Shown here: one piece after another, positions 10,573 through 62,498 of the stretch
Numbering within the stretch: the first letter of the stretch is position 1
How the letters are laid out: each line of letters starts with the position of its first letter
From: Hexactinellida sp. DTS-2022
Taxonomy: Eukaryota; Porifera; Hexactinellida
Reading direction: 5' to 3'
NCBI GenBank assembly: GCA_028753945.1
Contig: JAPNXP010000002.1
Span: forward strand, 3,534,001 to 3,598,000
DNA length: 64,000 nucleotides
The notes under the pieces: generated by a model
Told to the model about the DNA's origin: nothing
What the model saw: the letters and a program-made list of their open reading frames with translations, nothing else
Database searches by the model: none
Position numbers and translations under genes: made by a program

Positions 10573-11135
10573 CACTGCCTGGCCAAAAGTATTAGTACTA
10601 CAATAATTATTTTATAAACAGTCAGGGTACCTAGCAACATACTAACGTTTCTGGGTGCTTCTACAATATTATTTTTATGAAACGATATCTTAAGTATAAG
10701 AATATAGCAATTTTTTTAAATTTTAATTTCTATAGTGGTTATAAACTCATTAACTATATAATGAGCTAATTAAATATTTAATTTCGGATAATTATGAGGC
10801 AATTAAAATATACAAATTCTGATTTCGGATTTGAATTCCTCACAATCGAACTACTCTAGGTGCTAAATATCTAATCATTACGAACATTTTATACTGCGAT
10901 ACAGCCTCATTCCCATTGATGCCACTTGCGCCACAAGTGGCACGTGGCAATTACACTATGCCACTTGATGGATATTTTTTGAAAATTTCCTGATGTCAAT
11001 TTTTTATTTATTTATATATATAGAACTAAATGTAAAGTAGTTTAGAGTATTTTGTATAGCCTTCAAAATTTTGCTAGAAGAATAATTTGTCTGCATTTTA
11101 ATACCTCTTGTTCAAATACTTTTGGCCAGGGAGTG
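10573..11135. mobile_element. Tc1/mariner-type MITE, family T, copy 1 (563 bp)
   Basis: Ends CACTGCCTGGCCAAAAGTATT and its inverse, TA on both sides. Copies 2 and 3 are at 20111 and 44568. The related family E copy at 30.9 kb lacks it, so the insertion is visible by comparison. It contains an internal GCCACTTGTGGC-type palindrome. Confidence 0.85.
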
Positions 11136-11490
11136 TATATGATATATTTCATATCAATTCAAATATATATTTAGTATATACTTACTGTATCCCAACTAGT
11201 GTAGACATATTATACATATTACAACATTAATCACCACGTTATCCCTCTATTATTCCGGAAAGGATGTCCCAAAGAAAGCGAAATCAGATAATATTGAGAG
11301 ACCTGTATGGAATTCGATTAATTATTGCAAATTATATATTTAAATGATTTAGCTAACGGTAGCTTAACGGAATATTCCAAACCGGGATGAAACACCAGTG
11401 AATCTTATCTATTGTCTGTAAGAATAATTTATGTAACTTTAGTCACTAATATCTCAAATTCCATAATTTTACACTTCGATGAATATTTTC

Positions 11491-19784: not shown

Positions 19785-21178
19785 ATGGTGCAGGAAATGG
19801 TCGAATTGTGAATTTTCGAGATTTGGTGAGAATATTTTTTGGTTTTCCATAATAACGGTAAGAATGTGTTGAACATTCGATCTCCCAATTTGGAGTAACC
19901 ATATCGAGTGACCCCTTGTTTTTCTCGGGTATGCGTACTGAGTGCGAATATACTATTGGAATATACTATTAGATACTATTTCACCCAAATTTCAATACCT
20001 ACGTACAAGTGCGATACTAGAATATTTGAGGGTATTAATAGAAAATGTGAGCTTGAGAAAATTGAAACTCCAATAATAAACAATTCAATAAAAAATCCAA
20101 ATGTCAGATACACTAACCGGCCAAAAGTATTTGAACAATGGGGATTTTAATGCACACACAATACTCGTCTGGCAACTTATTAACGGCTATCTAAACTGTA
20201 CTCTGATATGACTATAAATATCTTAATAAAGATATACATTACAAAATATTGTGATTTCAATTCAATTTTGAAAATAACCACGAAGTGGCATAAGTTTTTC
20301 TGCCACGTGCCACTTGTGGCATAAGTGGCACAAATTGAAATGTGGCTGTATCACAGTGGAAAATATTCGGATTGGTTTGAAATTATGCACTTAGAGTAAT
20401 CAAACCATGTGGAATTCAAATCTGCTATCAGAATAAAGATATTAACATTGCATCTTAATGATAACAAATTAATTATTTAATTAGCTAATTAAATATTTAA
20501 TGAGTTTAACGCCTCCATAAAAATGTAAATTTGAAAATTTTGCTGTTTTATAATACTTAACATATCGTTTCATGTAAATAGCCATTTTGTAGCATCTACT
20601 AATGTTAATATGCTTGTATAACCTCAAATGTCTAAATGCAAATTATTGCTGTTCAAATACTTTTGGCCGGTTAGTGTATATCACAAAAGTTAACCTAGCC
20701 GGCGAGCCTCCTCCTAGCTACTGGCCTGACACAAGGAAGAATAAATGGGGGAGCATGTGCATTGCACTATGGAACTATGGCCGGTCCAAACCTGCGAAGT
20801 ACTACAAGTACAAAGACATGTTCTTAACGACTTTATATTGTCAGATTCGTGCTCAGTACTTAATTTCGAGCATCTAATACTTTTGATCTTGGATAAATCT
20901 TGGCTTTGAGCTGGAATATGATAAATGCATACTTTTGGCTTGTCAATTAATATTTAGAGTGTTTCTAATAGTATATTCGCACTCAGTACGCATACCCGAG
21001 AAAAACAAGGGGTCACTAGATATGATTACTCCAAATTGGGAGATCGGAATGTTTAACACATTCTTACCGTTGCTATGGAAAAACAAAAATATTCTCACCA
21101 AATATAGTCAATATACCTATCAAAATGCTGTAAATTAAGTGCTGAGCACGAATCTGACAATATAAAGTCGTTAATAAT
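19785..21178. repeat. Two pairs of inverted repeats around a MITE
   Basis: 19785-19985 is the inverse of about 20955-21115 (shared GAGTGCGAATATACTATT and CTCCAAATTGGGAGATCG). A second, shorter pair is 20826-20872 against 21132-21178. Between the first pair lies MITE T copy 2. I recognise no protein in the region. Confidence 0.65.
20111..20676. mobile_element. Tc1/mariner-type MITE, family T, copy 2 (566 bp)
   Basis: Ends CACTAACCGGCCAAAAGTAT and its inverse, TA flanks at 20109-20110 and 20677-20678. Opposite orientation to copy 1. The palindrome TGCCACTTGTGGCA with neighbouring half sites is at 20315-20332. Confidence 0.88.
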
Positions 21179-32483: not shown

Positions 32484-33117
32484 GTTGCTTCTTTCGATAT
32501 CATTAAATTACCGGATAACTGGACGAACGTAGCCTCTGGAGAAGTTGCACTGTTAGAAACAGTGCTCCCAGGTTCATCTGAATGGGACAGCATTATATGT
32601 AAATTTAAGCGGACACGATTAATCCCAAAATGTATTGCGAGAGTCCAGAACCGCCAGCAGTGGTACAATTACCAGCAGAACTTTCAGCGATTTATTTCAA
32701 TGAGTCAGGATCCAAATGAGTTGACATTATTTCATGGAACTGGTCTGATGGATCCGAATTAAATTGTTCGTGACATGGTTGGGCTTGATTTTCGATTTTC
32801 GAGGAGAGGTCTGTGGGGATTTGCCACCTATTTTGCCGATGATGTACGATTGGCTAATGCTTATTCTCATCAAATAGCTAGGACTAATCTCAAAAGTATC
32901 TTCCAGGTGAAGGTTATTGCAGGAACTATAATAGATATGTCAAAGGACGACAGTCTCCTATTACCTCCGATGATGCCAGGACAAGATGGAATTATTATCC
33001 CCCGAAGATTCGATACAGTATCTGGTGATCACTTTTCAGGTTTCAAAAATTATATGTTGTACTGTAATGATCGTGTATACCCTGAATATTTGATCACATA
33101 TGTTGATAATATAGTTT
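32484..33117 (+). pseudogene. PARP catalytic domain exon with one in-frame stop
   Basis: The exon starts after TTTTCTAG at 32483. It reads IKLPDNW, SSEWDSIICKF, ARVQNRQQWYNY, then the ADP-ribosyltransferase signature: His in LTLFHGTG, Tyr in GLWGFATYFADD, and Glu in VYPEYLITY. This H-Y-E triad is that of PARP/tankyrase-type enzymes, which transfer ADP-ribose from NAD to proteins. A TAA at 32760-32762 (DPN*IVRDMVG) interrupts an otherwise open frame, so this copy is probably a pseudogene, or a readthrough allele or sequencing error. Upstream exons were not found. The YR-element block starts about 150 bp downstream. Confidence 0.85.
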
Positions 33118-33261
33118 AGAGATGTGTCGTAATTACGATTTCTATATTGTTCTGTATTTTGAAAGTCGGTTCAGGGGAAACGAGTTGACATCATTACAAT
33201 AATTCTCCCTAGTGGCGGATGTTAGGAGTCGCTGTGTTGTCCGACATTAATTAATTAATTA

Positions 33262-35490
33262 TTCCATTATGGGAGGCTTTGTTTCTCAATTTGTTCAGAG
33301 TTTAACCCTCAAAAAGGTCCCTGATAAGGTCTGCTTATATAAATAACTCTTTCGAAAGAGTACGGAAGGATCTGATGTATATATCTTTTGTCTATACCTA
33401 TTTCTGCATGTATGCATCTATTTTGGGATTTAGGGTCAGGGGTTAGGAATCGACAAGGATTCCGCCCTAGCGGCGGACGTTAAGGTTCGCCGCGTTGCCA
33501 TAAATTCTCAATTGTTTTGTTTTTGTTTTGTACATTTCATTCACTATATTTGAAGTTATTTTTTGGCTTCTATCGTGGTCTATTCTTTCTCTTGTTTGGA
33601 CAATTCTACACGTGGCTTTCTCTCTTCACACCTCTTTAATTCTTACTCAGACCCCTTTCACTTTTCTTCATCACCATGCACCATGCACCATGCACCATGT
33701 GAGTATACTTTTATTTCTTTGTTTAATCAACTACGTATACTATTTTAATCAACTACGTACATACTACTATTTTAATATTTACGTATAATATCACTGTTGT
33801 CCTAATAGCATGTTAACGGAATTCTATATAGCGAATTGATAATTTAGTACTGAACATGTCTATAGATTCTCTGATTACTTCATAGTAACCACAGAGTTAT
33901 GCCAGAAGTGATATTACTAGGAATTTATTCATTCAAGTGCTTATTGAATTGTTTTGTCTAGGTATGGATTCTTTTGGAATGCAGTTATGAGCGTCTATTC
34001 AATATAACATAGATACTGCCATGGATTTACTTAGTTTATAATTGTTCTAGAATGTTCTCTATTTGTATTCAGCTATATTAATGCATAATCTAACGATTCA
34101 GTGACAGATAAGTTTGATTTTAGACTTCCATGTGCCGAATATCAAGGGACAGTGTCAGTATTGCGGATTTGTGAACATTTATTTTATTTATAAGACACTT
34201 TATATTATATTTATTGAAGTTTGGTGCTTTTGGCTTATCGAATTAATGCGAAAATACATGTTAGTGACATAGAAATTGTATAAAAATTTTGAGCTCTTAA
34301 CCGATCTTAATTTCGTCAAAATCTGTGGCAATATCTCCCTAACACCGGCATTTATATCATATTGAGAAAAAGGTTGTGAAGAAACCCAACGCGTTTAAAT
34401 TTACGAAGTAGTATATTATAACTATACCATCTAACTTAAAATGGATTATTGATGTCACTAGGAAGTTGAAACTAATTTCTAGCATGATATTTAATTTCAA
34501 AGTTCATGGTCACATCACTGAAATGACACCACCATATATGGGCATGCGAATTTATAGAAGAGTGACCATTTGGTTACTAGTCTCATTTGTTCTTCCAATG
34601 AGTTTGTAGTGGGATATTGATGTGAATAGTTGGTTAGATCTAAGCTCTAGAGTTTATACTTTCGTTGATATAAATTTTGTTGTGTCATCAAAATTGGGCA
34701 CATTTCATGCCCATATACGGATCATTTTGAAAACGGTGCATGTTGGGGTCACAAAATGTATTATGAACGGATAGGAAGTCGGGTATTGCGAGCATTTTGA
34801 GAGGTTTATAAATATTGTAGCTGCTCGGGTGTCTTAGAAATAAAATGGACCAGAAAACGTACCCTCGAATGCGATTATAGGCCATAAGTGTTTAAATTTT
34901 CACTTTTTGCGAAATTTTTTTGATCAATTGTTGTTTATTTTCGTCAGTGATTGCTAGGATAGAGTAATGGAACCACCAATCTTACCATTGTTGAGGAATA
35001 TAATAAAGAGAATCGTTCAAAGTGGAGAAACCAGTGATCCGCTGTACAAAATAGCTTATAACTCTGAAAATACGGGTGGACGAGACTCAAAACCATATAC
35101 AAACATTAGTTATGGTCCTTCGGGAGTGTTTGGTACAAAAAAAAAAAAGGGTTATGATGTCTTTTGGAGCGAAATTTCTGATTTTTCCCTTTAGAGAACA
35201 CCGTTAAACTATACTTAACTTATTGTGTGTACTTATGTTTATAGGTGCAGAGCAAATGCAAGAATTATGAGCCATCGACTATACCATTCCTACTTCTGAT
35301 GCTTACTTTCAAATTGTGGTGATTTGCAACCTATTTATTCACTTCCTAATGTCAAGATTCTATACAAACTTGATTATAACACTCATTCACTGCTCACCGT
35401 TGGACTTGTTGAAATAGTCAATTCAGATATGAACTGCAATAAATCAGTCCTTCTTTTGTCGATGGACTAATAACAGGTAATTGATTATTT
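33262..35490 (+). pseudogene. Decayed first copy of recombinase tail plus 'gene 2'
   Basis: 33262-33335 matches the last codons and 3' side of the recombinase gene (40521-40595). 33346-33740 matches the promoter and first exon of gene 2, ending CACCAT before GTGAGTATAC, with CACCATG triplicated. 35200-35490 is a decayed copy of its exon B with the same GTTTATAG acceptor. The middle (33780-35190) is replaced by unrelated repeats, including a family B relative at 34490-34870 and an unrecognised 75-residue frame at 34967. Confidence 0.7.
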
Positions 35491-35544
35491 CATATTTCCA
35501 CTTCAGATGCCGTTGACTGAATGATTTAATGTGTGTATAGCGTA

Positions 35545-36167
35545 GAAAAACTATATTTGGTGTTTTTCCGCGCAAAATCATTCATACCTTTCATGTCGTG
35601 CTGTAAATCCTCTTCTGTCAATGTCACACAACCTGTCCCGATTGTTACTGACCAGATATACCTGAGCCTAATTCTATGAACCAGTCAATGTCAGTCTCGG
35701 TAAAGTCTCATTCTGATCGCTCTGTCCACACACTTTGTCCTGAGTCAGTTATTCCCTTGGAGCCAACTTCAGTCACCCGGACTGAATTGGAATCAATGAA
35801 GGAGGATATCATTGACGAAATAAGGAAAGGTAAAGTGTCCCTGATAGCGGAGTTACAAGAGTCTATCGTTCAGCAAGTTACTATGACCATCGGGAAGCAT
35901 TTTCAGGAGGCTATTAGCCATCAGGCTGATGAGATTGCATCTCTTCAATCCCAGGTGTCATTGCTTCAGATCGGTTCCTCCATTCCCTCGCAAACAACAA
36001 TCCCCGAAGTCGAACTAGGTGCTTTGGATGACTCCATTAAGATTTCCTCCTCCATTCCTGACGTTGGAGTCCATGCTTGTTGTCATACCAATTCTCCAGA
36101 CTTGCATGACGTTACTGTGCTTAGAAATAAGAAGAAAATTCCTAAAGTTAATTTAAATAGTTATTAA
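35545..36167 (+). pseudogene. Coiled-coil protein, left copy, 5' end damaged
   Basis: Near-identical to the intact ORF at 51527-52147 (minus). The first 40 codons are disrupted by indels (one base lost in GACCAGATATACC), leaving an open frame from 35676 with 163 residues. The middle is a predicted coiled coil (LESMKEDIIDEIRKGKV ... HQADEIASLQSQVSLLQ). Function unknown. Confidence 0.65.
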
Positions 36168-37004
36168 ATAACTTTAATTATAATACATATTATATAACTT
36201 ATGTGTTCATGTTCACTTCTGAATATATGTATGTCTGCTAGTGTATTTCTTGGGGTTCAGGCATCGCCTAGGATTATTCTCCCTATGGGACGCCTACTAG
36301 GGTCCACACTATTGGTTAGTAATTTGTTAAGTTTGTCGTTTTTTGTGTTTTTTTAAAACATAGCTTTCCTTATACTTACATCACTGATTCTATTTGGTTC
36401 ATACTCCCAGGCTCCGATATCGACTATACATTTTTCTCCCCACAGAGCAACTTGTATAAATTATTCCCCAATTTTCGTCATATTCTTATAATCGCCAGCT
36501 TGTCAATATATTGGCTGGCATTACTTTTCCCTTCTTTTTGTTAATCTGAGCAATTGGTGTTAATAGATTGTCCCAACTGTTGAATAGTTGACCAATTGCA
36601 TATGTGTACTACTAAAAAGCATTCCTGAGAATATTCATTATATCGTGTAGACGGTGTAGTTTCTCTATTTGTTTTCTTTTATGCCTTAGAATATATATTT
36701 TTTCTGTTCAAATAAATTAGTTTTTTATTATCCAATATTTCCCTTTTGGCTTCTAACAGCACTTGGGTCACTCTGTCTGTCTACATCATCTATAGCCATG
36801 TATGGTCTTATCTAAGTTATGTCATCGAGTGGACTTGGTTTTCGTTGTAACATTCGGTTGACATTCCCATATTGTTAATTCAGGCGTTTCTTCCCAATTC
36901 CTTAGTTAGTGTGACTTCATTGTTTCGTTACACTTGTTTGTCATCCCCGTCCGTCCCATTATGTAGCCTTTGTCCGGATGTATTTCATCAAATATTTGAT
37001 GGAC
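36168..37004. other. 3' flank of the coiled-coil gene
   Basis: No ORF. 36168-36943 is repeated in inverse at 50755-51526; the shared sequence stops after CACTTGTTTGTCAT at about 36943. Confidence 0.6.
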
Positions 37005-37792
37005 CATGGCCTACTTAATATACGGCTATATATGTTCCCGAGAATGCCAAGAAAGAAGAAGGCCAGTTTCTAATTTTCATTTTAGGATAAACTATGCCTC
37101 CTATTGTTGTTATTTGGGTTGTATATGGGGTAATCAACCATTGCGAGTCCAATGGAACCACTTTTGAGAATCTCAGATTTGTGGTTAAGCTGTTTAGGCG
37201 CAATTTAATGATGACACCACAAATATACAAAATTATAAAATTTGAGTATAAAGAACTGCGAGAAAATGAAAATAATTTGCTAATATAATTCGAATACATT
37301 TTCCGGATATATATTGATAATGAATATATATAAACCAGCAATTATATACGTTTTATGTACGAAAATAGTAAGTTTTAATTCGGATACTACTTGTATTTTA
37401 GCATGTGGTTGCTCTATAATTTTTCATTTTTTTTAGAATGTCGCCATTTTGTGATTTAGTAGCCTTTGGGGTATGAAATATATCCCTATATTAGTATTCC
37501 TATTATAAAATTATTATAAAGTAGGAAGAAACTGAAATTAATGATATTTGAAAAAATTTCATTTTACCATAAATTGTTACCGTCATCATTAAATTGCGCC
37601 TAAACAGCTTAACCACAAATCTGAGATTCTCAAAAGTGGTTCCATTGGACTCGCAATGTTTGATTACCACATATACAACCCAAATAACAACAATAGGAGG
37701 CATAGTTAATCCTAAAATGAAAATTAGAAACTGGCCTTCTTCTTTCTTGGCCTTCTCGGGAACATATATAGCCGTATATTAAGTAGGCCATG
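37005..37792. mobile_element. 788-bp element with about 210-bp terminal inverted repeats
   Basis: 37005-37217 and 37580-37792 are near-perfect inverted copies. Flanks give a possible 7-bp duplication GATGGAC (36998-37004, 37793-37799), though the CATGG palindrome makes the border ambiguous. The paired open frames inside (MPPIVVIWVVYG...) are the same repeat read from each end. Superfamily unknown. Confidence 0.75.
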
Positions 37793-37820
37793 GATGGACT
37801 ACAGAAACTAGTAAGAGTGC

Positions 37821-37950
37821 ACCCTCACTAATCCGAACTTCTTTTCGTTCCGATTTCATTATGAAATTATTCTATCCCTACTAGTATTTATTCTACCTTT
37901 TTGTTACCCCATTTTGCTACAACATACATAGCGCTCGAATTAGTGAGGGT
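37821..37950. mobile_element. 130-bp MITE-like repeat
   Basis: Ends ACCCTCACTAATCCGAAC and inverse ACCCTCACTAATTCGAGC, resembling pogo-type MITE ends. No clear TA duplication. Confidence 0.45.
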
Positions 37951-38130
37951 TTCTCATCCGAAGGTGTTGTTAATGCCATTGGCTAACAATTTAGTTAATT
38001 CACTAGGTGCACTTTAATCCATATTTACACTTGGATATCCCAATTTCCAATCAATTTTTCTTGTGTGCTTGTTTTTATTATCTTAAACTTATTTCCCTCT
38101 TTCCGTGGTATCATTAGAGCGCTAAATCGT

Positions 38131-38157
38131 GTGTGTGTGTGTGTGTTTGTGTGTGTA
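38131..38157. repeat. (GT)n microsatellite upstream of the zinc-finger ORF
   Basis: GT tract interrupted once by TTT, about 70 bp before the ATG at 38229. Confidence 0.85.
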
Positions 38158-38228
38158 TAGGTTTTTGTGTGAGAGTTTTTTTTACTTCTCCATTCTCCTA
38201 ATTTACCAAAGTTTTCTCACACGTCTAT

Positions 38229-38969
38229 TTGGATAATATGGCGGAGGTTTCTTATCCAAATGTGTCTTCAGATGTTAATAGAAAGCCAGTCTCTATCCTC
38301 TGCAAAATATGTGACCGGCCTCGATGTTTCTCTAAATATAAACGTCACCTATTGACGCATGTGAAGAATGGAGAGATAAATCTGAAAGAGGTTCACCAGA
38401 TACTCTTTAATGTTCGAATCACTCGATTTGACAAGCGGAAGCAGGAATCTCTTCCATTGGGACACGTATGCCATTACCGTAATAATTTGGGTGAGGAGTG
38501 TCGGCACGTGGTACTCAATCTTGGACGCCATCTAGTTTCAGTACACAAGTTGGATAGGTGCTGTTCGAAATTTGAAGATCTGATCGTAGAAGCTCAAAAT
38601 GAAAAACCTTTAAAACGACCTCGTCGTGTGAAATCCAGAGAGGACACTAGCGCACATTCGAGTGATGATTTAGACAAACTCAATGAAAATCTTTCTGGGC
38701 AGCAATTGCCAGATAAGTTGACCTCGACAAGTTGTATAGATACAAGTTTGGTGAATGCCAGTTTATGTACTAGCGACGCCTACAACTTCGCGAATGACAC
38801 TAGTTCAGATTGTTCCACAGACGAAGAAGAAGTTGTAATGAGTGAACCGACTCCTCCCAATTCTAATTTTGTCAGCACTTACCAGCCGCCATACGTACGC
38901 TGTAACAGTTTAAGCTCTATTCAATTCATTGATCCTGAAAAGATTTTGGATGAATTCCACGCATTTTAA
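38229..38969 (+). CDS. C2H2 zinc-finger ORF preceding the recombinase
   Basis: 246 residues. A first finger at C25-x2-C28-x11-H40-x3-H44 (CKICDRPRCFSKYKRHLLTH) and a second, unusual one at C81, C91, H101, H106. The rest is Ser/Asp-rich. The frame stops at 38967-38969, while the -1 frame opens after a TGA just upstream (about 38951) and runs without a stop into the recombinase, so the two may form one protein by frameshift, or a single base may have been lost. It probably provides DNA binding for the recombinase (inference). Confidence 0.7.
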   Translation: MDNMAEVSYPNVSSDVNRKPVSILCKICDRPRCFSKYKRHLLTHVKNGEINLKEVHQILFNVRITRFDKRKQESLPLGHVCHYRNNLGEECRHVVLNLGRHLVSVHKLDRCCSKFEDLIVEAQNEKPLKRPRRVKSREDTSAHSSDDLDKLNENLSGQQLPDKLTSTSCIDTSLVNASLCTSDAYNFANDTSSDCSTDEEEVVMSEPTPPNSNFVSTYQPPYVRCNSLSSIQFIDPEKILDEFHAF

Positions 38970-39034
38970 AAACAAAAGGAGGAGGTGGTAGAAGAAATAC
39001 ACCCACTAAAGGTGATATAAGTTCGTTTCGTTGT

Positions 39035-40543
39035 ATGGTTAAGGAGATAGGTTGGGAAAATTTATGGGATCCCAATTTGTTAAATAAGTATGTCAGTTCA
39101 GCTAAATGTACACCATCAACAACATATTGTAGACTACGTGCCTACGAGCGATTTGTTAACTTCCTACGCATGCAATTACCCAGCTTTCTACCATCATCAG
39201 AACGTTTAAAGATGATGGAATCAATGTTGTCAAATTTGAAGGAAGCACTAGGGAAAGATCGTCATTTGAGAAGCAAAGATACGATGACAGCTAGCCGGAA
39301 ACGTATGCCCTACTCATTTAATGTGTCACGGGAGTGGCGTTCTAGGCGGGAAAGTTTCGAATTGAAGAGGTATTTTGTGTCGTTTGCTGATCAGACGGAA
39401 CATTTAAGTAAGTCGTTGTATCTACAGCTCCTAAATTATCTGATAGTGGAAATTCTTTTGGCTAATGCTCAGCGTTCAGGAATCATTGAAGGTATGCTTA
39501 TTATGGAGGTATTACAGGCTAAAGGGAATCCCAATAGTGAAAATCTTCATTATATCTATGTTGCGAATCATAAAACTGGTTATCTTCAGCCTGCAATACT
39601 TTACCTTGACGCAGAAATCTACGATTACCTTTTAACTTTCGTTTCGAGAGTTCTTCCTTTGCTACCTCCTACTCAGCACCTGCGTAGTGGGAATGATTGT
39701 CATATATTTCAGACTTGGCACTCTATTAAACTACCAGCTAGCTCTGTAAGTTATTGTTTACGAGCTGGTCTGAGACTTTTTGGCATTGACGATCCAGAAG
39801 GCTGCCCGACGCACTACCGGAAAGCTGCATCAACATTGATAAGTATGCATAATCCTTCAATGCAGGAATCGTTAAGTCAATTTATGTGTCATGCACGTTC
39901 AACAACTGAACGACATTATCGGCATAACATGTCCCATAGAACCTTATATCCCGTGTTCAATGAGCTGGCCAGATGTCAAGTAATTCTTCCTGAGGATGCA
40001 ATCACTACTACTGATTCACTTGAAGTTGATGCGTCATCTCTCAATGAGAATGTTCCTTTATGTAGTAACTCTCTCAAAGTAGTTTCTATCTCTCATGGTA
40101 GTCCCTGCAAGAATTTGTATTCACAACCTGAAGAAATAGGTCTCGATAGTGAAGTGGAGAATACTCTTGCCAATAATTTCGAGGACTCATTAAATGTTAC
40201 TGTGAGTGACTTAGAAGGAGCTGATTGTGATTGTAATTCCACCAATTCAATGCACACAATTGTAAATGGGCCCTGTTCTCACCTACCTCATGTTGACAAT
40301 CCTATTGGCGCTTCAGAAAATCAATCAACAGTACAAGAGACCCTTCTGACTATCAAACCGTCCAGGTTTGCCTGCAAAAGAAATGGCAAGAGTATTTTTG
40401 GAGGTCAACTACAAGAGGATATATTCTTCTCCACCTTCGAGAGTTTGCTTGCAAACGCGTTAGATGATAAACCCGTTAGTACTCTTGAAGTTCTCCAGTT
40501 GTCTCGGAAATCTGAACATTTTTTCCATTATGGGAGGATTTGA
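39035..40543 (+). CDS. Tyrosine recombinase (Crypton-like/YR family)
   Basis: 502 residues. The catalytic set can be placed by eye: Arg147 in NAQRSGIIEGM, Lys180 in VANHKTGYL, the HxxR-box equivalent T-H-Y-R at 259-262, His286 in FMCHARSTTE and Tyr295 in ERHYRHN. An N-terminal SAM-like helical part and a 190-residue acidic tail flank the core. YR enzymes cut and rejoin DNA through a phosphotyrosine link and move Cryptons and related elements. The 3' end is repeated at 33262, and its unit is flanked by gene 2 on both sides. The frame is open upstream of the first ATG back to about 38954. No intact second copy is in the window. Confidence 0.8.
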   Translation: MVKEIGWENLWDPNLLNKYVSSAKCTPSTTYCRLRAYERFVNFLRMQLPSFLPSSERLKMMESMLSNLKEALGKDRHLRSKDTMTASRKRMPYSFNVSREWRSRRESFELKRYFVSFADQTEHLSKSLYLQLLNYLIVEILLANAQRSGIIEGMLIMEVLQAKGNPNSENLHYIYVANHKTGYLQPAILYLDAEIYDYLLTFVSRVLPLLPPTQHLRSGNDCHIFQTWHSIKLPASSVSYCLRAGLRLFGIDDPEGCPTHYRKAASTLISMHNPSMQESLSQFMCHARSTTERHYRHNMSHRTLYPVFNELARCQVILPEDAITTTDSLEVDASSLNENVPLCSNSLKVVSISHGSPCKNLYSQPEEIGLDSEVENTLANNFEDSLNVTVSDLEGADCDCNSTNSMHTIVNGPCSHLPHVDNPIGASENQSTVQETLLTIKPSRFACKRNGKSIFGGQLQEDIFFSTFESLLANALDDKPVSTLEVLQLSRKSEHFFHYGRI

Positions 40544-40641
40544 TTTCTCAATTTGGTGAGAGTTTAGCCCTCAAGAAGGTCACTGATAAGGTTCGTACAT
40601 TTGCTCGCAATAACCGTGGCAAATTCTCTTTCCTCGTTTAA

Positions 40642-41323
40642 CCGTAGACTGCCAAATCGGCACACAGTGTGGCAGTGCCAAAAAACGTAGTAAATAAACT
40701 CCAAATTTCAAAAGATTTCCGATTTAAACATGTTTTTATATGCTCTATCGATTTCGATCATAAAAAAGTTTTTTTGAAATTTCAAGATGATGACATAGCA
40801 TTAAAGTGTAATCTGCCACTTGAATGCCACCTCAATTAGAATTAATAAAATGTAAACTTTGGCTGTGCAAAACATGTTAGTTTTGGAATTCAATGTATAG
40901 ACACTTTTTTGAATGTTTTACTCGTATATTTATAGAGTTGTGGACATAATGGAATTTTCTAACATTTTTTCGTCATCCATGGTTCAAAAAAACAAACTTA
41001 GTGGTTTTAATATATTGATGTAGATTTAGTAGAATGTGTCCGAATCGTTTGAAATATGTTATTCAAAATGGAATATTATGGCTCCACATGATGTAGTTTT
41101 CAAAGTAAGACTAACTTCCTTTATTCTCAGGATATTTCGTTTTAAAGAAAAATTGTTTGTCACCATTTTTGGGACAAAATATTGAACAGAATTTTGCAAA
41201 AAATTTCAGATGTCGGCAAAATATGAATGTCTTGATGAATTTTGAATATAAAAGTTCATTCTTTTGATTCAAAAGAATTGTAGTAAATTAGAAATTCATG
41301 AAAAAGCTTTCGGCAGTATTCAG
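40642..41323. mobile_element. TTAA MITE, family F, copy 2 (682 bp)
   Basis: TTAA at 40638-40641 and 41324-41327; ends CCGTAGACTGCC and inverse CTGAATACTGCC. It separates the recombinase from gene 2. Empty of MULE, in contrast to copy 1. Confidence 0.75.
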
Positions 41324-41397
41324 TTAATCTTGAGATTCCCTCAACTTTTTCCGCCTCAGCCCTTTTTGTGTTTCTTGGTTTGTAACTTATAGGAATA

Positions 41398-41412
41398 ACT
41401 CTTCGAAAGAGT
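41398..41412. promoter_or_regulatory. Palindrome at the recombinase/gene 2 junction, candidate recombination site
   Basis: ACTCTTCGAAAGAGT here; ACTCTTTCGAAAGAGT, a perfect palindrome, at 33346-33361; at 50725-50746 (inverted copy) a different 22-bp sequence with 9-bp inverted arms around a 4-bp centre. All three run into the same GAGTACGGAAG(A/G)ATCTGA. Function inferred only from position and symmetry. Confidence 0.35.
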
Positions 41413-44400
41413 ACGGAAGAATCTGATGCAGTATATATCGTTTGTCTATAACTATTTCTGTATGTATGCATCTATTTTGGGATTTAGCTTCAGGGGTTAG
41501 GGATCGACAAGGATCCCGCCCTAGCGGCGAAAATTAAGGTTCGCCGCGTTGTCCAAAATTCTCAAATGTTTTGTTTGTTTATATTTATTTTTATTTTGTA
41601 CAATACTTCACTATATTGGAAGTTCTTTATTGGCTTCTATAGCGGTCTATTTTTTCTCTTTTGGACAATTCTACACTTGAAAACCTTCTCTCTTCACTCT
41701 TCTTTCATTCCCACCTCGACCTATTTCATTTTTCTTCAAAAGCATGTGAGTATACTTGTAATTCTTTGTTTGATCGACTCGAATATTTTTTTATGCATTG
41801 TTTTACTTACTTTCTAGGAGCGAATCATTCCATATGTCCCAGCTGCTTTTCAATTATATTGAAAAAAAATTCCTTAGTGAATTGAATACTTTTCGTTGCG
41901 AGATGGACGATATTTCTACCTCCCTGGCCAATTCAAATTGAAGCTCGTGATTGACCACGAACGGTTTATTCGTCAATTTGAATCAACCGTCATTTCACAG
42001 GTTAATTAATTGTATGCATTTCTTTTCTAAATTTTACTTTTCTTTTAACTTATTGCACCGTATATTATCTAAAAATTGAAATACCGGTGTACTGTTCAAA
42101 GCAGCTATGATTGGGCGATGAGATTCCCCTCCACTTTTTTTATCTGTCCGATTTTTTCATGGTGATATAGACCTGGATCTAATAATCATAACACTCGATA
42201 TGAACTATCTATGAAATTAATATTAATAAGCATTTTGATTTGTAACAATTGTACTTGTCTTTGATATGTAAGATCTCTGTTTTATTCCGGAAAAATGGCA
42301 TCCTTTTATCAAGCCAGCCTGGCCAGCCTGGCCGCGCCTGATTGCGTTTGATTGGAAATTTTGTCAACTGCGACTCCTTCTTCGTCCACCAATTTACAGA
42401 GTTGTCCTATAAGCATGTTAAACTACTCAACTTATTTGTGTGTACTTATGTTTATAGGTGTCAGAGCAAATACTCGAGCTATCACCTTCAGACTATGCCC
42501 TTCTGACTTCTGATTTTGGCCAAATTTTGGCTATTTGTAACCCATTCACTTCTGATGACCAGATTTTTGTCGAACTTGATGATGAGACTCGTTCTCTGCT
42601 CATCGTTGGTATGGTAGATGTAGTGAATTCTGTGATGAATAGCGTAATTCAGTCCTTCTATTATCGTTATCCTATTAAGGATTGACCCACACCTTCACTA
42701 ATTTAGTCCCAATCAAATCCCAACTTATATCGGTTTTCGCCTTATCTATACTGATAACAAATCCGCAATCAAATTGAATTCGAATAATATTCGCTCGAGT
42801 GATTGTGTATAGTTCCATATTACGTATTATTAAATTCCTATACCAGATGATTTTATGTGCGCCCAAATTGAAAAAAATATATTGATGATTAAGAGTTGTT
42901 TAGCCTTTGGTTATTATCTAAGTATATAAACAAAGACATGTAGGCTATTTTGATGTGAATTTATATTGACAATATTGTTCAGTAACGCTTCAAAGTGAAA
43001 CTATTCAAATTTCTATGATTATCTTGCATTTTTCTGATTCAAACACTTACAACAATTATTTTCATTTATTGTGAGTATCGTAACTGGCCACAGAGCTTGA
43101 TCTATATATAATCTATATGCCTGAAGTCTAAAATTAATAAACTCATTTAAGAATTTTTCTCAAAATGGGTGCATGTATGTATAGGTTTTGACTTTGGAGA
43201 AAAATATCTGTTTATTTATATCATAATACTGTTTATCTATATATATACACTCCATTCAGCAGGAATCTTAAATAGTGGTTATATAACAATGTTAAGTAAG
43301 TATTATGCAATGGTTTAATCTTAAGTTGTTAGGTATTAAGCATTACAAATTAGATAATTTCGCTATAAATAGTGACGAAATCCCCACCAAATTTTGTATT
43401 ACTTCAGTGGCGCTAAGTGGCGCAAAGTGGTATATTTCCTAAAGTATTAGGTATTTTGGGATGAAAATTTCTGTGAATAAACCCCATCTATAGAGCATGC
43501 GGAATATGCAATAATATAACTTTAATCAATTTTCTGGGCCTCCGCCCTGAAGGTGTGGGTCGAGCCTTAACAGGTAATTAAAATTTTATTTATTTTGCCA
43601 CTTAGATTCAGTTTAGTTTATTTATTTCATTCAGTATCGAAAACAAATTAGGTATGCCCATTTGAAGCTATCCTCTAGGTTCAATATGTATTTCTATTGA
43701 TTGTTTGCAACCTAATATACTGATATATAATCGTTTGTATTCTGCATGCATACTTGATTGGTTATTATTGATCATAAAATCCAATCTTGGATTCATGATA
43801 CTGCTTATCATGTTTTGTTAAACAATTGCGCAACACTCCGCGGAACGGCCGACTAAGCGAAGCGATCTATCTGTTGGTATCCATCATCTGCGGTAAAAAT
43901 AGGAAACGTTTGCTTCTGATGATTATTATGTTTAATTTTTTTCTTTAGGTCAATTTCGCTATATTTTACAATTTTCCCCTCGATTCTCATGGAGTATCTA
44001 CCTCAGGAGGTTATTGTTATGGTGATCAATTATCTGATCATTAATCCTTTGTTAAGCCTGCATGACTGTCGTGAACTGAGAGAGGCTATTAAAACTATAG
44101 TTGAAAGTTATGTTTCTATTCCATTTCCATGTTTTGAGCGCGATCTCTTACCCTCTTATTTTGCATCCCTACAAGAACGTAGGATAGCAGCTGCCATCTA
44201 CTATGAGGATGATGCAGGAAAGATTTCAAAATTATTTAGAGCCAACTCGACACCAATGCTATGCCTCAAGTCGACTCATGCTGATGAAGTTTCGCACGTA
44301 TTTTTTCAGCCCTCTGAATCTCGCTTGAAATGCACTCGGGCAGGGTTTACCCAATTGGTGGATCACTCTAAAGATGGATTTATTTCTTCACTTGTTGCTT

Positions 44401-44543
44401 CGCACCACGTTCTGGTACAAGTATTCCCTGATTGTGTGAATATCCGAGGATTACTGCTCGATGATGTTGAGTCAGTCGAGAGAAAATTGTTAGTACACTT
44501 GCAGAAGCATGTTCTCTCTTGTGAACACATCAGCCAATCAAAG
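41413..44543 (+). pseudogene. 'Gene 2', left copy, exon B disrupted by a TTAA element
   Basis: Exon 1 ends at 41745 (GCAT before GTGAGTATAC), exon A is 41818-42000, exon B 42458-42678 plus 43571-43573, exon C 43949-44543. Splicing exon 1 to exon A creates ATG across the junction. Exon A carries a 42-codon frame from that ATG and, in the -1 frame, YLPGQFKLKLVIDHERF, which joins exons B and C in phase. Exon C begins MEYLPQEVIVMVINYL, faintly F-box-like, followed by about 180 residues I do not recognise. The 888-bp TTAA element splits exon B three bases before its end. Inverted copy at 48507. Confidence 0.65.
42679..43566. mobile_element. TTAA element, family C (888 bp)
   Basis: Inverted ends GGATTGACCCACACCTTCA / GGCTCGACCCACACCTTCA, TTAA duplicated at 42675-42678 and 43567-43570. 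The inverted gene copy has the uninterrupted site CCTATTAACAG (about 49462), proving insertion and TTAA duplication. Confidence 0.92.
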
Positions 44544-44567
44544 GTTAGTCGTCTTTTGTACATAGTA

Positions 44568-45131
44568 CACTGACCAGCCAAAAGTATTTGAACAATAGGG
44601 ATTTTTATGCTCACACAATAGTATTCCGGTAACTTATTAACGGCTATCTAAACTACTCTGAAATGACTATAAATAACTTATTATAGATATACATATGAAA
44701 ATATTGTGATTTCAATTAAATTTAGAAAATATTCACCAAGTGGCATAAGTGTTTCTGCCACGTGCCACTTGTGGCATAAGTGGCACAAATTGAAATGTGG
44801 CTGTATCTTAGTAGAAAATATTTGGATTGATTTGAAATTATGCACTTAGAGTAATTTAACTATGTGGAATTCAAATCTGCTTTCGGAATTTATATATTAA
44901 CATTGCATCTTAATTATCACAAATTAATTATTTAATGAGCTAATTATATATTTAATGAGTTTAAAGCCTCCATAAAAATTTGAATTCGAAAATTTTGATG
45001 TTTTAATATACTTTACATATCGTTTCATGTAAATAGCCATTTTGTAGAATCTACTATTGTTATAATGCTGGTGTAAACTCAAATGTCTGAATACAAAATA
45101 TTGCTGTTCAAATACTTTTGGCCGGTTAGTG
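44568..45131. mobile_element. Tc1/mariner-type MITE, family T, copy 3 (564 bp)
   Basis: Ends CACTGACCAGCCAAAAGTAT and inverse, TA on both sides (44566-44567, 45132-45133). Lies just past the end of gene 2 exon C. Confidence 0.88.
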
Positions 45132-45156
45132 TATATATATATAATAGGAGAATGTT

Positions 45157-48382: not shown

Positions 48383-48506
48383 TTAAAGCCAAGAGTCATC
48401 ATAAGTTATTATATAATAATGAAATATACACTGCAAATATAAAAAGAACAAAGTTGAATGGATAGGAATATTATTGTTCGTTGGGTAAATCTACACTGAA
48501 TACTGA

Positions 48507-50724
48507 TGTGTCCACAAGAGAGAACATGCTTCTCAAGTGTACTAACAATTTTCACTCGACTGACTCAACATCATCGAGCAAACATCCTCGGATATTCACA
48601 CAATCAGGGAATACTTGTACCAGAACGTGGTGCGAAGCAACAAGTGAAGAAATAAATCCATCTTTAGAGTGATCCACCAATTGGGTAAACCCTGCCCGAG
48701 TGCATTTCAAGCGAGATTCAGAGGGCTGAAAAAATACGTGCGAAACTTCATCAGCATGAGTCGACTTGAGGCATAGCATTGGTGTCGAGTTGGCTCTAAA
48801 TAATTTTGAAATCTTTCCTGCATCATCCTCATAGTAGATGGCAGCTGCTATCCTACGTTCTTGTAGGGATGCAAAATAAGAGGGTAAGAGATCGCGCTCA
48901 AAACATGGAAATGGAATAGAAACATAACTTTCAACTATAGTTTTAATAGCCTCTCTCAGTTCACGACAGTCATGCAGGCTTAACAAAGGATTAATGATCA
49001 GATAATTGACCACCATAACAATAACCTCCTGAGGTAGATACTCCATGAGAATCGAGGGGAAAATTGTAAAATATAGCGAAATTGACCTAAAGAAAAAAAT
49101 TAAACATAATAATCATCAGAAGCAAACGTTTCCTATTTAAACCGCAGATGATGGATACCAACAGATAGATCGCTTCGCTTAGTCGGCCGTTCCGCGGAGT
49201 GTTACGCAATTGTTTAACAAAACATGATAAGCAGTATCATGAATCCAAGATTGGATTTTATGATCAATAATAACCAATCAAGTATGCATGCAGAATACAA
49301 ACGATTATATATCAGTATATTAGGTTGCAAACAATCAATAGAAATACATATTGAACCAAGAGGATAGCTTCAAATGGGCATACCTAATTTGTTTTCGATA
49401 CTGAATGAAATAAATAAACTAAACTGAATCTAAGTGGCAAAATAAATAAAATTTTAATTACCTGTTAATAGGATAACGATAATAGAAGGACTGAATTACG
49501 CTATTCATCACAGAATTCACTACATCTACCATACCAACGATGAGCAGAGAACGAGTCTCATCATCAAGTTCGACAAAAATCTGGTCATCAGAAGTGAATG
49601 GGTTACAAATAGCCAAAATTTGGCCAAAATCAGAAGTCAGAAGGGCATAGTCTGAAGGTGATAGCTCGAGTATTTGCTCTGACACCTATAAACATAAGTA
49701 CACACAAATAAGTTGAGTAGTTTAACATGCTTATAGGACAACTCTGTAAATTGGTGGACGAAGAAGGAGTCGCAGTTGACAAAATTTCCAATCAAACGCA
49801 ATCAGGCGCGGCCAGGCTGGCCAGGCTGGCTTGATAAAAGGATGCCATTTTTCCGGAATAAAACAGAGATCTTACATATCAAAGACAAGTACAATTGTTA
49901 CAAATCAAAATGCTTATTAATATTAATTTCATAGATAGTTCATATCGAGTGTTATGATTATTAGATCCAGGTCTATATCACCATGAAAAAATCGGACAGA
50001 TAAAAAAAGTGGAGGGGAATCTCATCGCCCAATCATAGCTGCTTTGAACAGTACACCGGTATTTCAATTTTTAGATAATATACGGTACAATAAGTTAAAA
50101 GAAAAGTAAAATTTAGAAAAGAAATGCATACAATTAATTAACCTGTGAAATGACGGTTGATTCAAATTGACGAATAAACCGTTCGTGGTCAATCACGAGC
50201 TTCAATTTGAATTGGCCAGGGAGGTAGAAATATCGTCCATCGCGCAACGAAAAGTATTCAATTCACTAAGGAAAGTTTTTTCAATATAATTGAAAAGCAG
50301 CTGGGACATATGGAATGATTCGCTCCTAGAAAGTAAGTAAAACAATGCATAAAAAAATATTCGAGTCGATCAAACAAAGAATTACAAGTATACTCACATG
50401 GTTTTGAAGAAAAATGAAAGAGGTCGAGGTGGGAATGAAAGAAGTGTGAAGAGAGAAGGTTTTCAAGTGTAGAATTGTCCAAAAGAGAAAAAATAGACCG
50501 CTATAAAAGCCAATAAAGAACTTCCAATACTGTGAAGCAATGTACAAAATAAAAATAAATAAAACTAAACAAAACATTTGAGAATTTTGGACAACGCGGC
50601 GAACCTTATTGTCCGCCGCTAGGGCGGGATCCTTGTCGATCCCTACCCTGACCCTAAATCCCAAAATAGATACAAACATACAGAAATAGTTATAGACAAA
50701 AGATATATACGTCAGATTCTTCCG
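48507..50724 (-). pseudogene. 'Gene 2', inverted copy, premature stop in exon C
   Basis: Exon 1 ends at 50398 (ACCAT before GTGAGTA), exon A 50143-50325, exon B 49462-49685, exon C from 49086 down to about 48510. Exon lengths equal those of the left copy (183 and 224 nt). Exon B is intact here. Exon C has a TGA (DDVESVE*KLL) where the left copy has AGA, and similarity ends near 48507, before the exon's donor. The exon A to C reading frame is continuous across both splice joints. The ATG is again made by joining exon 1 to exon A. Confidence 0.65.
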
Positions 50725-51526
50725 TACTCATTTAATCAAACGAGTATGACAAACAAGTGTAACGAAACAATGAAGTCGCACTAACCATGGAATTGGGAAG
50801 AAACGCCTGAATTAACAATATGGGAATGTCAACCGAATGTTACAACGAAAACCAAGTCCACTCGATGACATAACTTAGATAAGACCATACATGGCTATAG
50901 ATGATGTAGACAGACAGAGTGACCCAAGTGCTGTTAGAAGCCAAAAGGGAAATATTGGGCAATAAAAAAACTAATTTATTTGAACAGAAGAAAAAAAATA
51001 TTCTAAGGCATAAAAGGAAACAAATAGAGAAACTACACCGTCTACACGATATAATGAATATTCTCAGGAATGCTTTTTAGTAGTACACATATGCAATTGG
51101 TCAACTAATCAACAGTTGGGACAATCTATTAACACCTATTGCTCGGATTAACAAAATGTAGGGAAAAGTAATGCCAGCCAATATATTGACAAGCTGGCGA
51201 TTATAAGAATATGAAGAAAAATTGGGGAATAATTTATACAAGTTGCTCTGTGGGGAGAAAAATGTACATTTGATATCGGAGCCTGGGAGTATGAACCAAA
51301 TGGAATCAGTGATGTAGGTATAAGGAAAGCTATGTTTTTAAACTAACAGAAAAAACGACAAACTTAACAAATTACTAACAAATAGTGTGGACCCTAGTAG
51401 CCGTCCCGTAGGGAGAATAATCCAAGGCGATGCCTGAACCCCAAGAAATACACTAGCACACATACATACATTCAGAAGTGAACATGAACACATAAGTTAT
51501 ATAATATGTATTATAATTAAAGTTAT

Positions 51527-52147
51527 TTATTCAACAATATAAATTAACTTAGGAATTTTCTTCTTATTTCTAAGAACAGTAACGTCCTGCAAGTCTGGAG
51601 AATTGGTATGGCCACAAGCATCGATTCCAACGTCAGGAATGGAGGAGGAAATCTTAATAGAGTCATCCAAAGCACCTAGTTCGACTTCGGGGATTGTTGT
51701 TTGCGAGGGAATGGAGGAACCGATCTGAAGCAATGACACCTGGGATTGAAGAGATGCAATCTCATCAGCCTGATGGCTAATAGCCTCCTGAAAATGCTTC
51801 CCGATGGTCATAGTAACTTGCTGAACGATAGACTCTTGTAACTCCGCTATCAGGGACACTTTACCTTTCCTTATTTCGTCAATGATATCCTCCTTCATTG
51901 ATTCCAATTCAGTCCGGGTGACTGAAGTTGGCTCCAAGGGAATAACTGACTCAGGACAAAGTGTGTGGACAGAGCGATCAGAATGAGACTTTACCGAGAC
52001 TGACATTGACTGGTTCATAGAATTAGGCTCAGGTATATTCTGGTCAGTAACAATCGGGACAGGTTGTGTGACATTGACAGAAGAGGATTTACAGCACGAC
52101 ATGAATGATTTGAGGATTTTGCGCGAAACTCCAAATATAGTTTTCAT
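51527..52147 (-). CDS. Coiled-coil protein of the recombinase element, intact copy
   Basis: 206 residues from ATG at 52147. The N-terminus (MKTIFGVSRKILKSF, then CC) is basic with a Cys pair; residues about 70-140 form a predicted coiled coil (ESMKEDIIDEIRKGKV, HQADEIASLQSQVSLL); the C-terminus is polar and ends KKKIPKLIYIVE. No known domain. The copy at 35545 is damaged at its 5' end. It sits directly upstream of gene 2 in this arm, in the same orientation, whereas in the left arm the recombinase genes lie between. A structural or DNA-bridging accessory role is possible but unsupported. Confidence 0.55.
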   Translation of the reverse strand: MKTIFGVSRKILKSFMSCCKSSSVNVTQPVPIVTDQNIPEPNSMNQSMSVSVKSHSDRSVHTLCPESVIPLEPTSVTRTELESMKEDIIDEIRKGKVSLIAELQESIVQQVTMTIGKHFQEAISHQADEIASLQSQVSLLQIGSSIPSQTTIPEVELGALDDSIKISSSIPDVGIDACGHTNSPDLQDVTVLRNKKKIPKLIYIVE

Positions 52148-52564
52148 ACGCTAACTTATAGATTAGATCAGATATGCGATATAACCTTAAATTATAGTTT
52201 GGGTTTTGATATTTTGTTGTGCAAAAACATTTACTATTTTTGGCGAAATATCAGATTTTATATGACTACATAAGTGGCTACAGCCAGGAGGGCTACTATT
52301 TGAACGTTTAACAGATTATATATTAGATTATATCGCTTATTAAATACAAATACAAATCTTAATATTCAAAAGATGTCAAAGGCAATGTCAAATGCAGGAA
52401 AATATGGGCAACACAACAAATTAAGCCAAATGATCTGGCAACTAAGCAAATAATCTTTGAATAGCATTATGAATAACAAAATCAAACCGTGAAACATCTA
52501 AACCTTTGATATTTTCTGCCTCAAGTTACAAAATATATACAAATACAGTCGACTCCTTTAATAG
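52148..52564. other. No gene recognised
   Basis: AT-rich. Homology to the left arm ends just upstream of the ATG at 52147. ACAGTCGACTCC at 52545 looks like a pogo-type terminus, but no partner was found. Confidence 0.4.
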
Positions 52565-53239
52565 AGCCACTGCTTAAAGAATATACCAAAGATATGTGCA
52601 TGTTCCTCTCCGAACAGTATAGATCATGCTCTGATATGTAAAAAGGGTGGTTTCGTATCGCTCCGACACAACCAGATCAGAGATTTAGAAGCACATTGGC
52701 TTTCAGAAGTATGTAAAGGAGTCGAAACAGAGCCAAAGTTGATTCCATTGACTGGGGAAACATTTGAGCACAAAAGCACTAGCACAGCACCTGAGGCCAG
52801 ACTTGATATCCTTGCCAGAGGGTTCTGGAGTAGTTTGGATAGGACATTTTTTGATGTCCGTGTTCTCCACCACGGGTGTAAGTCAAATGATTGTGGGAGC
52901 TTAGTTAAGGTATATGAGAAACACGAGACAGAAAAAAAAGATTTGTATAACCACAGAATCTTAGAGGTAGAAAAATCTTCTTTTACCCCCCTAGTTTTTT
53001 CAACCAGCGGTGGCATGGGCAAAGAAGCGGATAAATTTCACAAAAGGCTTGCATCACTCCTTGTTAGCAAAAGAGGAAACTCTTATAGTGATATAATGGC
53101 CTACATTAGAAGAAAACTCCGCTTCTCAATCCTTCGCACCACGCTAATGGCTGTTCGGGGCTATAGAGGTACACCAGGCAGCAGGGATAATGAAAATAGT
53201 GATATAAACACTATACCCTATAGCAAGCAATTTTATTAG
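52565..53239 (+). pseudogene. C-terminal piece of a retroelement-type polyprotein
   Basis: Open from 52565 (no ATG needed) to 53239. A CxC...H...C motif (CACSSPNSIDHALIC), then KKGGFVSLRHNQIRDL, ARLDILARGFW, RTFFDVRVLH, EKKDLYNHRILEVE, SFTPLVFSTSGGM and a helical end. This order is common at the C-terminus of transposon-derived proteins in corals, sponges and other invertebrates, from memory; the spaced acidic residues recall a PD-(D/E)XK nuclease. The upstream reverse transcriptase is absent, so I treat it as a truncated copy. Confidence 0.6.
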
Positions 53240-61784: not shown

Positions 61785-61788
61785 TTAA

Positions 61789-62494
61789 GGATAAGGTTCG
61801 CCTGGAGATGGAGAAAGTACATTGGCTTGTTATATTCAGCCCTTAAACGCTTTCGAATTATCTATTGTTTAAGACAAAGTTTGACTCTCTAGCTTATATA
61901 CTTCCCGACTTACAGCAAGGTATGTGAATATGGAACTGAATGACAAATGATTGACCACAACATTAATTGAAAATTATTCATAACTCGAGTCATAACTGAA
62001 ATTTGGGTTATTATAAATGCGATGTTAAAGTCGCTATAGTTAGTACAAAGTAAATGCTTGGGGGCGATAGAGAGCATAATATGATCAAATGTTTACTTTT
62101 CACACTACGTGGGTGATCAGTCGGAATTTTCAGGATGATGAAACATTCCTCAAAATTTCCGACCGATCACCCACGTAGTGTGAAAAGTAAACATTTGATC
62201 ATATTATGCTCTCTATCGCCCCCAAGCATTTACTTTGTACTAACTATAGCGACTTTAACATCGCATTTATAATAACCCAAATTTCAGTTATGACTCGAGT
62301 TATGAATAATTTTCAATTAATGTTGTGGTCAATCATTTGTCATTCAGTTCCATATTCACATACCTTGCTGTAAGTCGGGAAGTATATAAGCTAGAGAGTC
62401 AAACTTTGTCTTAAACAATAGATAATTCGAAAGCGTATAAGGGCTGAATATAACAAGCCAATGTACTTTCTCCATCTCCAGGCGAACCTTAGCC
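61789..62494. mobile_element. 706-bp fold-back TTAA element, family D
   Basis: Two arms, 61789-62134 and 62148-62494, are nearly perfect inverses around a 13-base centre. Ends GGATAAGGTTCGCC / GGCTAAGGTTCGCC, with TTAA at 61785-61788 and 62495-62498. No ORF. Confidence 0.9.
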
Positions 62495-62498
62495 TTAA

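What the first reader, a model, noticed from the sequence alone, without database searches (positions are those of the whole stretch)
33262..44543. Multigene tyrosine-recombinase element in tandem arrangement
Seen: the order is recombinase tail, gene 2 (decayed), coiled-coil ORF, zinc-finger ORF, recombinase, gene 2 again, all on the + strand, with duplicated junctions at 33262-33361 and 40521-41412. Known: YR enzymes move elements through circular intermediates and readily make tandem copies; described Cryptons are usually small and encode one protein. Inferred: this is a larger YR element of about 7 kb carrying a spliced gene of unknown function and a coiled-coil protein. I know of no described family with this gene set.
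Basis: partly seen in the sequence, partly recalled or inferred. Interest (0 to 1): 0.82.

Follow-up and report, generated by a model that had tools for sequence, protein, structure and literature searches.

The report
Recombinase element carrying a PARP gene
In what is probably a glass-sponge genome, a DNA-recombinase gene recurs beside an ADP-ribosyltransferase (PARP) gene and a coiled-coil gene, and these genes share an unusual double-hairpin sequence just behind them, which suggests a multigene mobile element of a kind I could not find described.

Summary
On the + strand lie a recombinase tail (33259-33345), decayed gene 2, coiled-coil ORF, zinc-finger/tyrosine-recombinase (YR) ORFs and gene 2 again. 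Corrections: zinc finger and YR are one frame-shifted gene. Gene 2 is the N-terminal part of a spliced gene ending in a PARP catalytic exon; such an exon (32484-33119) precedes the first recombinase tail. A third, inverted copy (48503-52153) has coil and gene 2 but no YR.
Genome-wide, PARP stands upstream of YR, same strand, at 5 of 26 YR places (C1: gene 2-PARP-coil-YR, with an uninterrupted 815-aa YR). One branch separates these YRs from seven YR-only copies. One YR and one PARP homologue from another assembly share a contig length.
New: a ~58-nt double hairpin with covarying stems and hexaloops follows PARP, YR and some coil genes. Of 36 genome matches to its core (reversed-pattern control 2), 28 lie within 500 bp behind such a gene, same strand; nine YR-only loci lack it.
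Best reading: an old YR-linked multigene element whose genes share a structured 3' element. Ends and movement by the YR are not shown; some arrays lack the YR. An integron-like system is not excluded, but poorly supported.

The parts
32484..33119 (+). PARP catalytic exon, one in-frame stop; last exon of an upstream copy of gene A (gene 2 + PARP)
   Evidence: PF00644 22.2 bits for 32763-33116 (below the 26.7 cut-off); 40% over 201 aa to the open C6 copy
33180..33238 (+). weak copy of the double hairpin behind the PARP stop (site C)
   Evidence: model R1 19.8 bits
33259..33345 (+). remnant of the recombinase C-terminus, stop at about 33345
   Evidence: 33259-33330 is 89% to 40520-40592;
33439..33496 (+). 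double hairpin (site A) between recombinase tail and gene A
   Evidence: model R1 76.9 bits; row of alignment A1
33351..35478 (+). decayed N-terminal exons of gene A (copy 1), interrupted by repeats at about 33813-34951
   Evidence: 78% and 75% matches to copy 2; repeat matches in L040 and L046; exon limits by eye
35541..36167 (+). coiled-coil ORF
   Evidence: 82% to the protein of the inverted copy
36253..36313 (+). weak copy of the double hairpin behind the coil gene (site D)
   Evidence: model R1 14.0 bits, E 0.06 with filters off, 0.22 over all loci
37004..37793 (.). pair of inverted repeats (arms of about 212-240 bp), probably an inserted element
38202..38969 (+). zinc-finger N-terminal part of the recombinase gene (zinc finger judged by eye)
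   Evidence: 40% to residues 51-267 of the C1 protein
38954..40543 (+). tyrosine recombinase catalytic part (R174, K207, R289, H313, Y322 of this ORF)
40519..40641 (+). recombinase C-terminus in another frame, with its stop
   Evidence: 78% over 36 aa to the C1 protein
40593..41401 (.). about 800 bp that the first junction lacks
41493..41550 (+). double hairpin (site B)
   Evidence: model R1 73.0 bits
41746..42679 (+). N-terminal exons of gene A (copy 2); exon at 42458-42679, earlier exon by eye
   Evidence: 42458-42679 is 31% to the C6 exon, E 2e-8
42675..43570 (.). repeat inserted in gene A at TTAA, many genomic copies
   Evidence: absent from the inverted copy
43923..44573 (+). gene 2 exon, third known exon of gene A
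   Evidence: 30% to the C6 gene A exon
48503..50732 (-). third (inverted) copy of gene A exons, without the TTAA repeat
   Evidence: 98-99% to copy 2
50593..50650 (-). double hairpin (site A3), upstream of the inverted gene A copy, at the place where the YR is missing
   Evidence: model R1 70.1 bits
51530..52150 (-). coil ORF of the inverted copy, 207 aa
   Evidence: 96% DNA identity

Best explanation
This is a degraded tandem of an old multigene element, built of gene A (a spliced gene: N-terminal exons including 'gene 2', then a PARP catalytic exon), a coiled-coil gene and a zinc-finger tyrosine recombinase, all on one strand. PARP and YR genes, and some coil genes, are followed by the same double hairpin. 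SHOWN: the recurring order and orientation, the split of the YRs on a tree, the YR fold, the conserved and covarying hairpins and their close association with these genes. INFERRED: the YR excises and integrates element DNA (by analogy with Cryptons, via a circle), which would give head-to-tail tandems; the PARP and coil proteins are accessory products. For the hairpin I think a structured RNA element in the 3' ends of the element's messages likelier than a recombination site, because stem sequence changes while pairing and the hexaloop pattern stay, and 6 G.T but no A.C cells occur on the sense strand.
For: Order gene 2-PARP-coil-YR on C1 with an uninterrupted 815-aa YR ORF. PARP upstream of YR, same strand, at C6:1.15, C11:6.45, C11:6.60 and the window. 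Tree: 5 PARP-linked and 7 YR-only copies separated by one branch, SH-aLRT 91, 0 of 500 label shuffles as low (three of the five are near-copies). The YR homologue P0005 and the PARP homologue P0031 each lie on a contig of 189,405 bases. Hairpin: 95.5% of cells paired, 22 cells changed on both sides, 0 of 500 shuffles; 11 strong local matches, 10 behind PARP, coil or YR genes and one (A3) where the YR is missing; genome-wide 36 matches against 2 for the reversed pattern, 28 of 36 within 500 bp behind a listed gene hit on its strand.
Against: 21 of 26 YR places (my grouping of the 42 matches) have no PARP, gene 2 or coil near; 12 of these were judged by coordinates alone. The C6:2.10-2.15 Mb array has gene A and coil but no YR hit. 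The identical PARP copies on C3, C4, C4 and C6 share longer flanks with a repeated transposase-like ORF, in inverted pairs at C3, at one of the two C4 places and at C6, so their spread is not evidence for the YR. No element ends, target duplication or circle was seen. In the inverted copy the YR block is missing at a point that is not the hairpin. By the core pattern only 19 of the 38 PARP hits have a site within 500 bp; most of the rest are more distant PARPs, but two 38% copies on C1 have one only at 2.1 kb. The YR has T where most YRs have H (T286; the usual H is recalled).
Confidence: 0.58

Rival explanations
1. Gene A and coil form a host gene family in tandem clusters, and Crypton-like YR elements insert beside or between its members by target preference; the hairpin is a 3' element of the host family that the YR genes have captured or use as a landmark.
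For: An array of gene A and coil without a YR hit; spliced gene A; YR-only copies elsewhere; in the inverted copy of the window coil and gene A abut without the YR.
Against: Order and orientation PARP then YR is the same at 5 of 5 linked places; hairpin also behind YR at C1, C6:1.15 Mb and the window; linkage follows the YR tree and may recur in another assembly.
Confidence: 0.28
2. The double hairpins are recombination sites (two inverted arms around 6 bp, as duplex core sites or folded single strands) at which the YR excises, inserts and shuffles single-gene cassettes, an integron-like system in an animal.
For: A site behind PARP, behind YR and behind some coil genes, in the gene's orientation in all 28 cases; arm-6 bp-arm layout recalls YR core sites as described in PMC3212892 (passage seen: arms of 11-13 bp, 6-8 bp apart; here arms of about 5-11 bp); in C6 the coil gene sits between two site repeats and is missing at the array end just beyond such a repeat; in L031 versus L044 coil and the PARP 3' half switch at the left edge of the site.
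Against: The other breakpoint in L031/L044 lies inside PARP; the YR loss in the window's inverted copy is not at a site; 3 of 8 C6 coil copies lack the second site; plain homologous recombination between the repeats explains C6; arm sequence varies between sites.
Confidence: 0.12
3. Ordinary segmental duplication: the genes were neighbours once and the linked places are copies of one ancestral locus, with no element at all.
For: Inverted 96-99% copy inside the window; L031, L040 and L044 are near-identical partial copies.
Against: Window, C1 and C6 YRs are deeply diverged (59% and 49-68% to the window) and lie on three contigs, yet keep order and hairpins; 18 of the 42 YR matches hold stops, as in decaying transposons.
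Confidence: 0.1

Closest known systems
Crypton transposons (PMC3212892; passages read)
   Same: Eukaryotic element with a YR and no reverse transcriptase seen; at least one described Crypton carries a second product (C48 peptidase in CryptonF-2_PS)
   Different: Here a spliced PARP gene and a coil gene upstream of the YR, shared 3' double hairpins; no Pfam DUF3504 match; T instead of H in the second catalytic box
Integrons (integrase structure 2a3v among the fold matches; otherwise recalled)
   Same: YR fold; a structured inverted repeat behind single genes in the gene's own orientation
   Different: Animal genome, spliced genes, two adjacent hexaloop hairpins in place of one long attC hairpin, no shown cassette exchange
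Starships (recalled; listings only)
   Same: YR element that carries other genes
   Different: No DUF3435 match, YR last in the gene order, far smaller, not fungal
DIRS/Ngaro retroelements (recalled)
   Same: YR, tandem-like junctions
   Different: No reverse transcriptase match among the ORFs scanned between 33 and 45 kb

Membership tests
tyrosine recombinases | Cre/Xer-type fold | tested here: met
tyrosine recombinases | R-H-R-Y catalytic residues | tested here: inconclusive
   R174, R289, Y322 in 21 of 22, 20 of 21 and 22 of 22 letters; the H position reads T286 in 21 of 22. Assignment of positions is by motif, recalled
Crypton | YR related to the Crypton/DUF3504 profile | tested here: inconclusive
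   No Pfam family for the window YR at E up to 1, none for the C1 YR, and none matched by more than one of 25 homologues; DUF3504 itself describes the domesticated form. No Crypton YR was aligned here
Crypton | short direct repeats or defined ends without inverted repeats | not testable with these tools
Starship | DUF3435 captain at the 5' end | tested here: not met
   no Pfam match; YR is last in the gene order on C1. The definition is recalled
DIRS/Ngaro | reverse transcriptase and RNase H with the YR | tested here: not met
   no such Pfam match among the ORFs scanned in 32-45 kb; decayed fragments under 90 aa were not scanned
integron | gene cassettes exchanged at structured sites by the integrase | tested here: inconclusive
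   sites found; exchange at sites suggested at C6 and L031/L044 but equally explained by homologous recombination
PARP (ADP-ribosyltransferase) | PF00644 catalytic domain above cut-off | tested here: met
   open C6 copy 38.5 bits, cut-off 26.7; the window piece 32763-33116 alone scores 22.2, below cut-off

The most novel reading that the evidence does not exclude
A eukaryotic analogue of an integron: an animal tyrosine recombinase that recognises folded double-hairpin sites behind single genes and assembles arrays of spliced gene cassettes, among them PARP-type ADP-ribosyltransferases.
Probability: 0.1. Interest if true: 0.95.

Novelty: new variant of a known kind. Interest (0 to 1): 0.68.

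Why it matters
A recombinase lineage that keeps company with a PARP gene over deep divergence, with a private structured element behind its genes, would widen what animal YR elements are known to carry and gives a defined sequence whose role (message processing or recombination site) can be tested directly. It also offers a natural case of recently amplified PARP genes in what is probably a sponge.

Tried and rejected
Simple insertion reading: after the inverted copy was found without the YR I took the YR block for an unrelated insertion between coil and gene 2. The C1 locus with the same gene order and the recombinase tail before copy 1 spoke against it. Spread of identical PARP copies by the YR: dropped when one search showed longer shared flanks with a repeated transposase-like ORF. 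Presence or absence of a whole coil cassette in half of the C6 units: reduced, since one search shows three coil copies present but without the second site. Rfam: no match in 30000-53000 at E up to 1. PDB by sequence: none. Viral contigs: no relative of the YR (one pattern). Phages: no relative of gene 2. Fold of gene 2: useless, pLDDT 33. PF12012 search of the own genome: nothing, but its controls rang nowhere either, so it shows nothing. Hexaloop scan: 10 GNNWAG hairpins of 8 or more pairs, third of 128 loop classes (mean 1.2; two classes had 12 and 13), some of the ten being near-copies and three looking unrelated, so the evidence rests on covariation and location instead. An extended outer stem of hairpin 1 is not well supported (66.7% of helix-1 cells paired). 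Rows left out of the tree for too few residues: L045, L046 and P0026. Papers: searches listed no paper that I recognised as describing a YR element with a PARP gene; listings only, except passages of PMC3212892, PMC10282587 and PMC10280926.
Full report
Setting. The window is contig C11, 3,534,001-3,598,000, of an unnamed 112.4-Mb, 18-contig genome. The only named relative of the recombinase is a hypothetical protein of the glass sponge Oopsacas minuta (P0006, 55%), so I infer a glass sponge; this is not tested.

Observation. 33259-33345 encodes the last residues of the recombinase; the same stretch in copy 2 runs 40520-40641. Both are followed by the same gene-A upstream sequence (33334-33747 against 41386-41793, 78%). 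The second junction carries about 800 bp more. A third, inverted copy at 48503-52153 holds coil and gene 2 at 96-99% identity, with neither the YR block (36951-41405) nor the 42675-43570 repeat.

Co-occurrence. One search gave 42 matches that I group into 26 YR places. For 14 of them I read about 10 kb or more. Gene A/PARP lies upstream of YR on the same strand at 5 of these 14: the window, C1, C6:1.15 Mb, C11:6.45 Mb and C11:6.60 Mb. Nine of 14 have none. The other 12 places have no PARP, gene 2 or coil hit near them by coordinates. Within this genome the five linked and the seven unlinked YRs with enough residues fall on two sides of one branch (SH-aLRT 91; 0 of 500 label shuffles as low); L031, L040 and L044 are near-copies, so these are three independent linked lineages. 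Homologues from other assemblies lie inside the linked side, and so the five alone are not a clade (AU test rejects it). Of the 26 YR homologues and 21 PARP homologues, one pair, P0005 and P0031, shares the contig length 189,405; P0005 falls on the linked side. Identity of the contig is inferred from its length.

The double hairpin. Behind the genes lies a stretch of about 58 nt: two adjacent hairpins, mostly with 6-nt loops of the form GNNWAG (H has a 5-nt loop in hairpin 2; B and A3 depart in one loop). On eight sequences from four places (the window three times; C1 twice; C6:1.15 Mb twice; the C6 array once) 95.5% of 112 cells pair, 22 cells changed on both sides, 0 of 500 shuffles reach the observed covariation score, and slid structures score lower. 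Non-Watson-Crick cells are 6 G.T/T.G and 5 others, none A.C; two of the six are shared by close relatives. Model R1 finds 11 strong matches in 237 kb: 10 behind PARP, coil or YR genes, and A3 at the place where the YR is missing; sites C and D in the window are weak (19.8 and 14.0 bits). The eight model sequences are among those 11, so only location is new there. In the whole genome the core pattern with up to one mismatch has 36 matches, 24 exact, against 2 for the reversed pattern. 28 of 36 lie within 500 bp downstream, same strand, of a listed hit; two more (C6:2104701, C12:1210756) lie beside DNA matches to the PARP end; two on C1 lie 2.1 kb behind PARP; four are unassigned. Seen from the genes, 19 of the 38 PARP hits have such a match within 500 bp; C6:1.15 Mb has one by the model only. 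The YR-only loci L033, L037, L038, L039, L041, L042, L043, L045 and L046 have no strong match in their 10 kb; several of these copies are decayed or cut short.

Rearrangement. In C6 a site repeat of about 142 bp follows PARP and again follows coil (one base differs by eye); at the array end PARP and one repeat lead straight to about 70 bp like the start of gene A, without coil. In L044 and L040 PARP reaches its C-terminus and runs into the site; in L031, otherwise about 94-97% identical, coil replaces the PARP 3' half up to the left edge of the same site. Both fit recombination at the site, by the YR or by homologous pairing. Against a site-specific role: the other L031 breakpoint is inside PARP, the YR loss in the window's inverted copy lies elsewhere with a short filler, and three of eight C6 coil copies lack the second site. 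The identical PARP copies on C3, C4 (two) and C6 share longer flanks, with inverted copies of a repeat that encodes a 570-aa ORF, transposase-like by eye, at C3, one C4 place and C6; their spread is better laid to that.

Verdict. I file it as a new variant of YR elements, with mobility by the YR inferred. The role of the hairpin is open: RNA element about 0.5, recombination site about 0.25, other 0.25 (my estimates).

Noticed in passing
window 48503-52153 (-) against 35538-44533 (+): Large inverted near-identical copy (96-99%) that lacks the YR block and the TTAA repeat; a natural empty site for the repeat and perhaps for the YR.
   Followed up: partly
window 42675-43570: About 896-bp repeat at TTAA with inverted ends, at 30 or more other places (a capped list) at about 76-97%; looks like a non-autonomous TTAA-type DNA transposon.
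   Followed up: partly
window 44566-45136, also 20109-20681 and 10659-11141: Repeat with inverted ends starting TACACTGACCAGCCAAAAGT; Tc1-like non-autonomous element (name recalled).
   Followed up: no
C6:2099926-2147439 (L050, L051): Array of nine PARP exons with identical search scores and open frames, mostly 3.8-5.5 kb apart; very recent amplification of a PARP gene.
   Followed up: partly
C3:2469261-2488320, C4:2265073-2284186, C6:2096980-2163793: Pairs of inverted, practically identical copies of a repeat with a 570-aa transposase-like ORF bracket the PARP genes, about 16-62 kb apart; perhaps a large composite mobile unit.
   Followed up: partly
window 52565-53239: C-terminal fragment of a non-LTR retrotransposon-like ORF at the edge of the inverted copy (judged by eye).
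   Followed up: no
window 7964-8602: ORF with an OTU-like cysteine protease motif (GDGNCLFRCL; recalled motif).
   Followed up: no
window 61785-62498: Stretch of 716 alignment columns that matches its own reverse complement at 98%.
   Followed up: no
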